Shown piece after piece: positions 8,107-32,659 of a DNA stretch of 37,722 bases (within the stretch, counting starts at the first letter, position 1; the number at the start of each line of letters is the position of its first letter). This DNA is from Trueperaceae bacterium. GTDB taxonomy: Bacteria > Deinococcota > Deinococci > Deinococcales > Trueperaceae. Where the stretch lies: positions 1 through 37,722 of the forward strand of contig SLRS01000087.1 of assembly GCA_007130855.1 (NCBI GenBank), in the 5' to 3' direction. Under the pieces are notes generated by a model, which did no database searches, was not told where the DNA came from, and saw nothing but the letters and a program-made list of their open reading frames with translations. A program made the position numbers and the translations under genes.

Positions 8107-8709
8107 TCAGCGGATGCCCGGCGGCACCTGCGCCGGCGGCGGCTCCGGCAGGTTCGTCGGCATCGGCACGCCCTCGAGGCGCTTGACCAGGCCGTTCTCG
8201 TTGCAGCCCACGAAGAAGGGGCAGCGCAGGCACTCCGACCACACCCGCGGGTGCAACTCGCGGGTCTTGTCGATCAGGGTGAAGCCGCACTTCTCGAAGA
8301 ACGCGACCGAGTAGGTCCAGGCGAACAGCACCGGGATGCCGATCCGTCGCGCTTCGGCTTCGCAGGCCGCCACCAGCGCCCTGCCGACCCCGCGCGCGGT
8401 GACGTCGGGCGCCACGGCCAGGCCGCGGACCTCGGCGATGTCGCCCCAGAGCACGTGCAGCGAGCCGTTGCCGGCGAAGACCGGGCCGTCATCGCCGTCG
8501 ACCTCGGCGACGAAGAAGTCGCGCAGGTTCTCGAAGATGCTCGGCATCGGGCGCACCAGCATCTTGCCTTGGCCGGCCCAGTAGCCGATGTTCGCGAAGA
8601 TCGCGGGCACGTCCGCGGCGTTCGCCGGCCGTACCCGCACGGCCGCGGAGCCGCCGGCGCGCTCCGTCGCGCCGGCCTTGACGCCGGTGCTCGCGCCGAC
8701 CTCGATCAT
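8107..8709 (-). CDS. Short-form N-acetylglutamate synthase (GNAT), last gene of the arg operon
   Basis: The 200-residue GNAT protein has the acetyl-CoA loop in VTARGVGRALVAACE. Around it lie features of stand-alone amino-acid N-acetyltransferases: RVRPANAADVPAI, GNGSLHVLWGDIAEVRGLAV, FAWTYSVAFFEKCGFTLIDK and the C-terminal PRVWSECLRCPFFVGC with clustered cysteines. It would acetylate glutamate, the first step of arginine synthesis. It overlaps the argH stop as ATGA, which fits the role. The same domain is fused to ArgH in some marine gammaproteobacteria, so the adjacency is meaningful. A Pro-rich tail ends the protein. The substrate is inferred from family resemblance and operon, not shown. 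Confidence 0.75.
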   Translation of the reverse strand: MIEVGASTGVKAGATERAGGSAAVRVRPANAADVPAIFANIGYWAGQGKMLVRPMPSIFENLRDFFVAEVDGDDGPVFAGNGSLHVLWGDIAEVRGLAVAPDVTARGVGRALVAACEAEARRIGIPVLFAWTYSVAFFEKCGFTLIDKTRELHPRVWSECLRCPFFVGCNENGLVKRLEGVPMPTNLPEPPPAQVPPGIR

Positions 8710-10289
8710 GGCGAGTGCTCGCCCCGCGTCGGCGCCTCGGCCGCCGCGGCCTCGGCCGCCGCGGCCTCGGCCGCGAGGGCACTGCGGGCACGCACCAGCT
8801 GCTCTTCCACGCGGCGTCGGGCCGTGCCTCCGTAGCTGTCGCGGGCGTCGACCACCGTCTCGACATCGAGCGCTGGGTAGACGTCGTCCTCGAAGTGCGA
8901 CGACACCTCGCGCAGGGTCGCCAGGTCGAGTTCCTGCAGGTCGACGCCGCGGTCGAGCGCCAGCGCGACCAGGCGGCCCACCGCCTCGTGCGCTTCGCGG
9001 AACGGGAGTCCCTTGCGCGCCAGGTAGTCGGCCAGATCGGTGGCGTTGCTGAACGCGCGGCCGGCGGCGTGCCGGGTGCGCTCGGCGCGGACCTCGATGC
9101 GCGGCAGCATGTCGGCCGTCAGGCGCAGGCACACGGCGAGCGTCTCGGCGGCGTCGAAGGCGCCCTGCTTGTCCTCCTGCATGTCCTTGTTGTAGGCCAA
9201 GGGCAGGCCCTTCATCACCGTCAGCAGGCCCATCAGCGCCCCGTAGACGCGCCCGGTCTTGCCGCGGATCAGCTCACAGACGTCCGGGTTCTTCTTCTGC
9301 GGCATGATCGAGCTGCCGGTGGTGTGCGAGTCGGGCAGCACCACGAAACCGAACTCCTGGGACGACCAGACGATCAACTCCTCCGACAGGCGCGACAGGT
9401 GCATCATCGCGATCGAGGCGGCGGCCAGGAACTCGAGCGCGAAGTCGCGATCCGAGACGGCGTCGAGCGAGTTCGCGGCCGGCTCGGCGAAGCCCAGCAG
9501 CGCCGCCGTGCGGTGGCGGTCGATCGGGAAGCCCGTGCCGGCGAGGGCGCCGGCGCCCAGCGGGCAGGCGGCGTCGAGCCGCGCGAGCGCGTCCTGGAAG
9601 CGGCCCTGGTCACGCGCCAGCATCTCCACGTAGGCGAGCAGGTGATGGGAGAGTCGCACCGGCTGCGCCACTTGCAAGTGGGTGTAGCCGGGCATGATCA
9701 CGTCGATGTGGCGCTCGGCCACATCGACCAGCACGGCGCGCGTCTCGCGCAGCAGCGCTAGTAGCCGGCGCGTGCGCCCGCGCAGCGCCAGGCGGAAGTC
9801 GGTGGCCACCTGGTCGTTGCGCGAGCGGGCGGTGTGGAGCTTGCCGCCCAGCGGACCGAGCTGCTCGGTCAGCCGCTGCTCGAGGTTCATGTGGACGTCC
9901 TCGAGCGCCACCGACCAGGGCAGCTCGCCCGTCTCCACCTGTCGCACGAGGTCGCGCAGGCCGGCGACGAGCGCCGTAGCCTCGTCCGGCGTGACGATGC
10001 CCTGCTCACCCAGCATGGTGGCGTGCGCGATGGAGCCCTCGAGATCCTCGAGCGCCATCGCCTGGTCGACCTCGATCGACGCATTGAAGGCCTGCACCAG
10101 CGCGTCGGTGGCGTCGGCGAAGCGGCCGCCCCACATGCCCTGGCCGCCCTTGGCGGGGGCGCCGTTCCCGCCGGCGCCGTTCCCGCCGGCGCCGTTCACG
10201 TCGGTGTCGTTCCCGTCGGTGTCGTTCCCGCCGGTGTCGTTCCCGCCGGCGCCGTTCACGTCGGTGTCGTTCCCCCCGGCGCCGTTCAT
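8706..10289 (-). CDS. argH: Argininosuccinate lyase with repetitive N-terminal extension
   Basis: The enzyme splits argininosuccinate into arginine and fumarate; it is a cytoplasmic homotetramer. The catalytic body starts at [15 protein letters not shown] (residue 52) and contains [22 protein letters not shown] (H204) and the superfamily signature [11 protein letters not shown] (325-335). Before it lie nine pentapeptide repeats of [10 protein letters not shown] type. At the C-terminus there is an Ala/Glu repeat (AEAAA). The upstream ATG is preferred because it overlaps the preceding stop as ATGA and M52 has no SD, but processing or initiation at M52 (10136) cannot be excluded. The total of 527 residues compares with about 460 normally. 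Confidence 0.95.
8736..8774. repeat. 15-bp tandem repeat in the argH 3' end
   Basis: The unit CTCGGCCGCCGCGGC occurs twice perfectly and a third time in part (8766-8774). It encodes alternating Ala/Glu at the ArgH C-terminus, just before the stop. Confidence 0.8.
10152..10286. repeat. Coding minisatellite, nine 15-bp units, at the argH 5' end
   Basis: Nine successive 15-bp units directly follow the argH ATG. In coding order they give [45 protein letters not shown]. All units keep the frame and start with Asn. Two alternating unit types (NGAGG and NDTDx) and a repeated block of about 30 bp suggest growth by slippage or unequal exchange. Confidence 0.9.
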
Positions 10290-10816
10290 GCCGCCGTCCC
10301 ATGCGTGCCGTTGCTCCCCGGTCGCTTGGTCTGCCAGGTGCCGCCGACGCGCTTGTGGAGGTCGATGCGGTCACCGTCGCGGCGCGTCTCGAGGTAGCCG
10401 ATGCGCGCGTAGTAGGCGAGCTGCCCGGTGGACGCGTCGCTCGGCAGGCTGAGCGAGAGGACGGGGATGTTGGCGCGGATGGCGGCGGCCTCCACCTTGG
10501 TCAGGAGCCAGCGGCCGTAACCCTGGCCGCGATGCCGCGGCAGGGTCGCCACGCGGTCGACCTCCCAGCCGTGGGCGTTCGGGCGCCAGCGCAGCGCCGC
10601 GAGCAGGGTACCGGTGGCGTCCAGGAGCATCAGCGCGCCGCCATGCTCGAGCCAGGGGCACATCGCCGCCTCGGTCTCGTCACTGTCGGGGTAGGCTCCG
10701 CGCCACAGCGTGCACAGCCGCTCGGCGTCGCCGAGCGCGGCCCAGCGCAGCCGTGTGGCCGCGTAGGCTTGGCCTGGGCGGCCCAGGACGGGGGCGCTCT
10801 CGGGCGTGTCGGTCAC
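10286..10816 (-). CDS. GNAT-family N-acetyltransferase between argG and argH
   Basis: The 176-residue protein has a typical GNAT fold: RLRWAALGDAERLCTLWRGAY, the core strand WEVDRVATLP, the acetyl-CoA loop RHRGQGYGRWLLTKVEAAA, and the C-terminal YYARIGYLETRRD. Its substrate cannot be told. It differs from the NAGS-like protein downstream and lacks that protein's features. The GTG at 10816 is chosen because GAGG lies 5 nt upstream, overlapping the argG stop region; the frame upstream lies inside argG. It overlaps argH as ATGA. A place inside the arginine operon suggests a role in arginine or acetyl-ornithine-linked metabolism, or simple co-expression. Confidence 0.82.
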   Translation of the reverse strand: MTDTPESAPVLGRPGQAYAATRLRWAALGDAERLCTLWRGAYPDSDETEAAMCPWLEHGGALMLLDATGTLLAALRWRPNAHGWEVDRVATLPRHRGQGYGRWLLTKVEAAAIRANIPVLSLSLPSDASTGQLAYYARIGYLETRRDGDRIDLHKRVGGTWQTKRPGSNGTHGTAA

Positions 10817-10823
10817 GACAGCC

Positions 10824-12050
<1,227 letters not shown>

Positions 12051-12107
12051 GTCGTCCTCCGAGACATCAGCGACCCGACCCCATAGCAACGGGCACGGCG
12101 AAGGCGG

Positions 12108-32605: not shown

Positions 32606-32659
32606 AAGGTCAGCGGCGGCGCCGCAAGGTCAGCGGCGGCGCCGCAAGGTCAGCGGCGG
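32606..32659. repeat. 20-bp tandem repeat, 2.7 copies, at a convergent 3' end
   Basis: The unit AAGGTCAGCGGCGGCGCCGC occurs at 32606-32625 and 32626-32645, with a partial third copy at 32646-32659 that contains the stop codon of the minus-strand LolA-like gene. Each full copy can form the hairpin GCGGC-GGC-GCCGC, so the array may serve as a terminator between convergent genes. Confidence 0.85.

What the first reader, a model, noticed from the sequence alone, without database searches (positions are those of the whole stretch)
10152..10286. Nine-unit 15-bp coding minisatellite at the N-terminus of ArgH
Nine in-frame pentapeptides ([10 protein letters not shown] and variants) are inserted between the coupled ATG and the normal ArgH start at M52. 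An Asn/Gly/Asp/Thr low-complexity arm on an essential tetrameric lyase is unusual, and 15-bp units keep the frame whatever the copy number. The arm could vary in length between strains and tune translation of argH, or form a flexible or Asn-rich assembly element.
Basis: seen in the sequence. Interest (0 to 1): 0.65.

Follow-up and report, generated by a model that had tools for sequence, protein, structure and literature searches.

The report
Repeat-expanded N-terminal tail of ArgH
The enzyme ArgH of this high-GC bacterium starts with a floppy tail made of nine copies of a five-amino-acid repeat; related species carry other tails, some with their own repeats, at the same place, so it looks like a real but probably harmless product of local DNA duplication rather than a new device.

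Summary
The array is real: nine in-frame 15-bp units at 10152-10286 (- strand), directly after the argH ATG that overlaps the stop of the upstream acetyltransferase gene (ATGA). No shuffle of the window, argH or the arm reproduces its score. M52 is not the normal start: in nearly all of the 35 family argH loci tabulated, a stop-start overlap lies 5-51 codons before (M/L)WGGRF. In six of seven same-genus species GGQG before M52 is conserved and varies only at third codon positions, so the arm is most likely translated. The arm is hypervariable, and unrelated tandem units arose independently in at least four species: here, G003 (18 bp), G005 (15 bp; single copy in its closest relative G004) and G021 (18 bp). 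Two co-binned G003 strains carry equal numbers of units in different order. C-terminal tails do the same. The sampled genome has many such arrays, nearly all with 3n periods when coding. RNA folding is unremarkable; AlphaFold2 leaves residues 1-54 unstructured. Best reading: recurrent tandem duplication in a dispensable disordered tail, tolerated because 15 bp preserves the frame. No evidence was found for regulation, assembly or metal binding. Ordinary in kind; the repeated independent origin at ArgH tails is mildly interesting.

The parts
8706..10289 (-). argH, argininosuccinate lyase ORF (527 aa); family core from residue 52
   Evidence: TIGR00838 621 bits, residues 52-505; Pfam Lyase_1 and ASL_C2; best solved relative 2e9f aligned from residue 52
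10152..10286 (-). nine 15-bp in-frame units, [10 protein letters not shown] and variants (the minisatellite)
10286..10289 (-). ATGA overlap of the GNAT stop (10286-10288) and the argH start (10287-10289)
   Evidence: same overlap at the homologous place in the family
10257..10259 (-). GTG in unit 2, an in-frame alternative start followed by A (GTGA)
10197..10199 (-). GTG in unit 6, second in-frame alternative start (GTGA)
10137..10151 (-). KGGQG; GGQG conserved in six of seven same-genus species with third-position changes only
10134..10136 (-).
   Evidence: relatives with L, P, T or K here have no start at this place
8734..8774 (-). second tandem repeat, 15 bp x2.7 (AAAEA) in the C-terminal tail of ArgH
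10286..10816 (-). GNAT acetyltransferase gene upstream of argH (likely GTG start at 10816 by comparison with relatives)
   Evidence: Pfam Acetyltransf_1
8107..8709 (-). N-acetylglutamate-synthase-like GNAT gene downstream, start overlapping the argH stop (ATGA)
   Evidence: PRK07757 160 bits, above its cut-off; also matches the acetyltransferase part of the ArgH fusion PRK12308

Best explanation
The array is a coding minisatellite produced by repeated local tandem duplication (replication slippage or unequal recombination, inferred) in the disordered N-terminal arm of ArgH. Translation most likely starts at the ATG that overlaps the GNAT stop, so the repeat is translated as a 51-residue flexible tail ahead of the conserved WGGRF core. 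Any unit of 3n bases keeps the frame and the tail lies outside the conserved fold, so such duplications are tolerated and come and go; the present array is a young, probably near-neutral example. Shown: array, reading frame, conserved stop-start overlap, hypervariable arm, independent repeats in relatives, unit turnover between two probable strains of one relative. Inferred: the duplication mechanism, near-neutrality, actual translation.
For: The array is significant against shuffles. The stop-start overlap lies 5-51 codons before WGGRF in nearly all family loci. GGQG varies only at third positions, in three of three variable columns. Unrelated tandem units sit at the same place in G003, G005 and G021. 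G004 has one copy of the G005 unit at 94.6% core identity, showing a birth. Two co-binned G003 contigs (97.85% identical) have units AD,GG,SG versus AD,AD,GG. Arrays scoring >= 50 are about 15-fold denser in the arms than in the rest of argH, and four of the other eight are in C-tails. In a 227-kb sample 24 of 25 coding arrays have 3n periods and 1 of 5 non-coding ones. Among units 1-8 four of five variable columns change the amino acid. Residues 1-54 have pLDDT < 50 and no secondary structure. Short protein repeats are known to favour protein ends and disorder (PMC7230257).
Against: Longest arm in the family and second-highest tandem-repeat score in the genome sample, so a selected role cannot be excluded. 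In delta-crystallin the first 25 residues dock into a neighbouring subunit and are needed for tetramer assembly (PMC4701392), so this end of the protein is not inert. The arm has no homologues in the structure alignment, which by itself lowers pLDDT. Variation within this species was not seen.
Confidence: 0.8

Rival explanations
1. The arm is a selected, length-variable module that tunes tetramer assembly, solubility or partner binding of ArgH.
For: The N-terminal segment of delta-crystallin matters for assembly (PMC4701392, PMC2779060); arms of 20 or more residues recur in several genera.
Against: No conserved motif or composition: Asn/Gly/Asp here, Pro/Ser in G003, Ala/Pro/Asp/Lys in G005, Gly/Ala/Ser in G021; many relatives have 5-8 residues. 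The docking part of delta-crystallin corresponds to the segment around WGGRF, not to the repeat.
Confidence: 0.08
2. The array tunes translation of argH, through the spacing or structure of the coupled start or through the two in-frame GTGA alternative starts inside it.
For: Units 2 and 6 contain GTGAAC, resembling the coupled start.
Against: The array lies after the start codon, the stop-start overlap is intact, and RNA folding is no stronger than shuffles (z -0.40, -0.10, -0.15). Relatives without repeats share the same overlap.
Confidence: 0.05
3. Initiation occurs at M52 and the array is untranslated spacer.
For: The core family match starts at residue 52; M before WGGRF is common in the family.
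Against: GGQG is conserved with third-position changes only (small sample); relatives with L, P, T or K in place of M52 must start upstream; coding arrays have 3n periods.
Confidence: 0.04
4. Assembly artefact of a metagenome-assembled genome.
For: Draft of 287 contigs; one relative shows a palindromic assembly artefact (G001:C351).
Against: The units are not identical and have an ordered variant pattern; the frame is kept; independent repeats occur at the same place in other assemblies. The exact copy number could still be wrong.
Confidence: 0.03

Closest known systems
Short protein tandem repeats at protein ends in disordered regions (census PMC7230257)
   Same: Short units, at a terminus, disorder-promoting composition.
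   Different: On a housekeeping metabolic enzyme, with several independent origins at the same tail within one bacterial family.
Bacterial VNTR / coding minisatellites
   Same: In-frame tandem units of 15-18 bp; unit turnover between close strains of a relative.
   Different: Copy-number polymorphism not yet shown for this species.
delta-crystallin / argininosuccinate lyase N-terminal segment
   Same: The residues before and around WGGRF are the homologous N-terminal segment.
   Different: Delta-crystallin has a short arm whose segment docks into a neighbour; here 45 repetitive residues precede it.
Phase-variable simple-sequence contingency loci
   Same: Tandem repeats near a start codon.
   Different: The 15-bp period cannot switch the frame on and off.

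Membership tests
Argininosuccinate lyase (ArgH) | Match above the TIGR00838 cut-off over the whole core | tested here: met
   621 bits against 279.5, residues 52-505
Argininosuccinate lyase (ArgH) | Conserved [11 protein letters not shown] and HTxRSRNDQ stretches | tested here: met
   Invariant columns 325-335 and 152-160 of alignment A1
Coding minisatellite | Tandem units of about 6-100 bp, in frame, above chance | tested here: met
VNTR (copy-number polymorphic locus) | Different copy number between strains of the species | not testable with these tools
   One genome per species is held; in relative G003 two probable strains have rearranged units but equal number
Phase-variable contingency locus | Unit length that shifts the frame or alters promoter spacing | tested here: not met
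   15-bp units, all inside the coding frame
RTX / calcium-binding repeats | Nonapeptide GGxGxDxUx recognised by family models | tested here: not met
   Period is 5 residues; no repeat family hit in Pfam or NCBIfam

The most novel reading that the evidence does not exclude
In this family the ArgH tails are evolvable length modules: repeats are repeatedly born there because tail length or stickiness adjusts tetramer assembly, or association with the products of the coupled acetyltransferase genes, under selection.
Probability: 0.07. Interest if true: 0.6.

Novelty: new member of a known kind. Interest (0 to 1): 0.28.

Why it matters
It gives a clear natural series (single copy, two copies, rearranged units, nine units) of repeat birth and turnover in a disordered tail of a housekeeping enzyme. 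It is also a caution for gene-start annotation: the tail would be trimmed away if WGGRF were taken as the start. If the tails proved functional, it would be a simple case of evolvable tail length in metabolism.

Tried and rejected
RNA structure over the start and array: not stronger than shuffles. Dispersed-element origin: the unit pattern occurs in the own genome only at argH; the nearest similar repeat (C204, 71%) is a different 30-bp Gly/Asn/Asp linker in a PKD-like lipoprotein, best read as convergent low complexity. RTX-type calcium binding: period and family models do not fit. The second argH in G001:C351 as a real duplicate: a perfect palindrome, hence artefact. The genome-contig scan returned mostly distant ArgH. 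A paper search for ArgH with repeats and N-terminal extension found none.

Full report
Observation. On the - strand, argH (10289-8706) begins with ATG, overlapping the TGA of an upstream GNAT acetyltransferase gene as ATGA. Nine 15-bp units follow at once (10286-10152), then KGGQG and M52-WGGRF. Units 1-8 vary at five columns: GGC/GAC, GCC/ACC, GGC/GAC (with one silent C/G) and GGG/GTG. Four of these five columns are amino-acid changing. Scores exceed every shuffle tried. The junction of two units occurs nowhere else in the genome at up to 3 mismatches.

Start site. The profile and the PDB match indeed begin there, but that only shows where family conservation begins. In the family (39 genomes held) an ATGA, GTGA or TTGA start overlapping an upstream stop lies 5-51 codons before WGGRF in nearly all of the 35 loci tabulated. 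Some relatives have L before WGGRF, and sampled relatives from other families of the order have L, P, T or K, and cannot start there. In six of seven same-genus species the four residues before M52 are GGQG, with three variable columns, all third positions (a small sample). GNAT tails end at matching positions, 12-13 residues after GGTWQTK, so M1 here is homologous by position to the GTG starts of relatives.

Arms in relatives. Arm lengths in the genus are 51 (this genome), 32, 26, 22, 17, 14 and 12 residues. G003 has an 18-bp unit (VPSSGG type), G005 a 15-bp unit (QAPDK twice) and G021 of another genus an 18-bp unit (GASAGS). The unit sequences are unrelated, so the origins are independent. 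G004, 94.6% identical to G005 over the 900-bp core, has the unit once (QAPDR), so the duplication is recent. G003 holds two contigs, 97.85% identical over 791 bp, with units in a different order but equal number. These contigs are probably co-binned strains; this is inference. Arrays scoring at least 50 number 5 in 1.6 kb of arms (4 if the second G003 strain is dropped) and 8 in 44.7 kb of the rest, about 15-fold enriched. This statistic is post hoc and the genomes are related. Four of those eight lie in C-terminal tails, including AAAEA here and ASDDT in G006.

Genome context. In 227 kb of this genome (window included), 30 arrays scored at least 60; 25 are coding, 24 with periods divisible by three, against 1 of 5 in non-coding sequence. 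Codon periodicity itself favours 3n periods and gene calls were approximate, so this is supporting evidence only. The argH array ranks second. A PKD-like lipoprotein and an acidic Asn/Asp-rich protein carry similar linkers.

Structure and RNA. AlphaFold2 with 23 sequences gives pLDDT below 50 over residues 1-54 and no secondary structure there, against a confident core; the missing alignment depth in the arm contributes to this. RNA folding of the start region and array is ordinary.

Interpretation. The most economical account is recurrent in-frame tandem duplication in a disordered tail that tolerates change. A published survey reports short protein repeats concentrated at protein ends and enriched in disorder (PMC7230257). 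A role in assembly is not excluded, since the N-terminal segment of delta-crystallin docks into a neighbouring subunit (PMC4701392), but neither sequence nor length of the arm is conserved. Low-complexity stretches before WGGRF, such as Asn/Ser/Gln in Psychrobacter, also occur in ArgH of other phyla, although their start sites are uncertain, so a low-complexity arm as such is not unique. The taxonomic family is unnamed here; the best PDB match (2e9f, which I recall as Thermus thermophilus ArgH) suggests Deinococcota, perhaps Trueperaceae, but this was not tested.

Noticed in passing
window 8734-8774: Second 15-bp repeat (x2.7, AAAEA) in the C-terminal tail of ArgH, next to the ATGA junction with a NAGS-like GNAT gene; G006 (ASDDT) and G033 (DATGG) have other C-tail repeats.
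   Followed up: partly
window 8107-12089: Apparent operon argG - GNAT - argH - NAGS-like GNAT with ATGA overlaps on both sides of argH; the last gene resembles the acetyltransferase domain fused to ArgH in PRK12308.
   Followed up: partly
window 32606-32659: 20-bp x2.7 perfect repeat between fumC and the convergent gene; a non-3n period outside coding sequence.
   Followed up: no
L002 1479-1644 (G000:C204): 30-bp repeat encoding a Gly/Asn/Asp linker in a PKD-like lipoprotein of the same genome.
   Followed up: partly
L179 3506-6493 (G000:C165): 996-aa acidic protein with several arrays, including an Asn/Asp/Ala-rich one (NDANDANDT).
   Followed up: no
L125 (G001:C351): Contig is a perfect inverted palindrome, two 9.8-kb halves 100% identical: assembly artefact.
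   Followed up: yes
L046, L050: Psychrobacter ArgH has an Asn/Ser/Gln-rich stretch directly before MWGGRF, possibly a long arm of independent origin.
   Followed up: no
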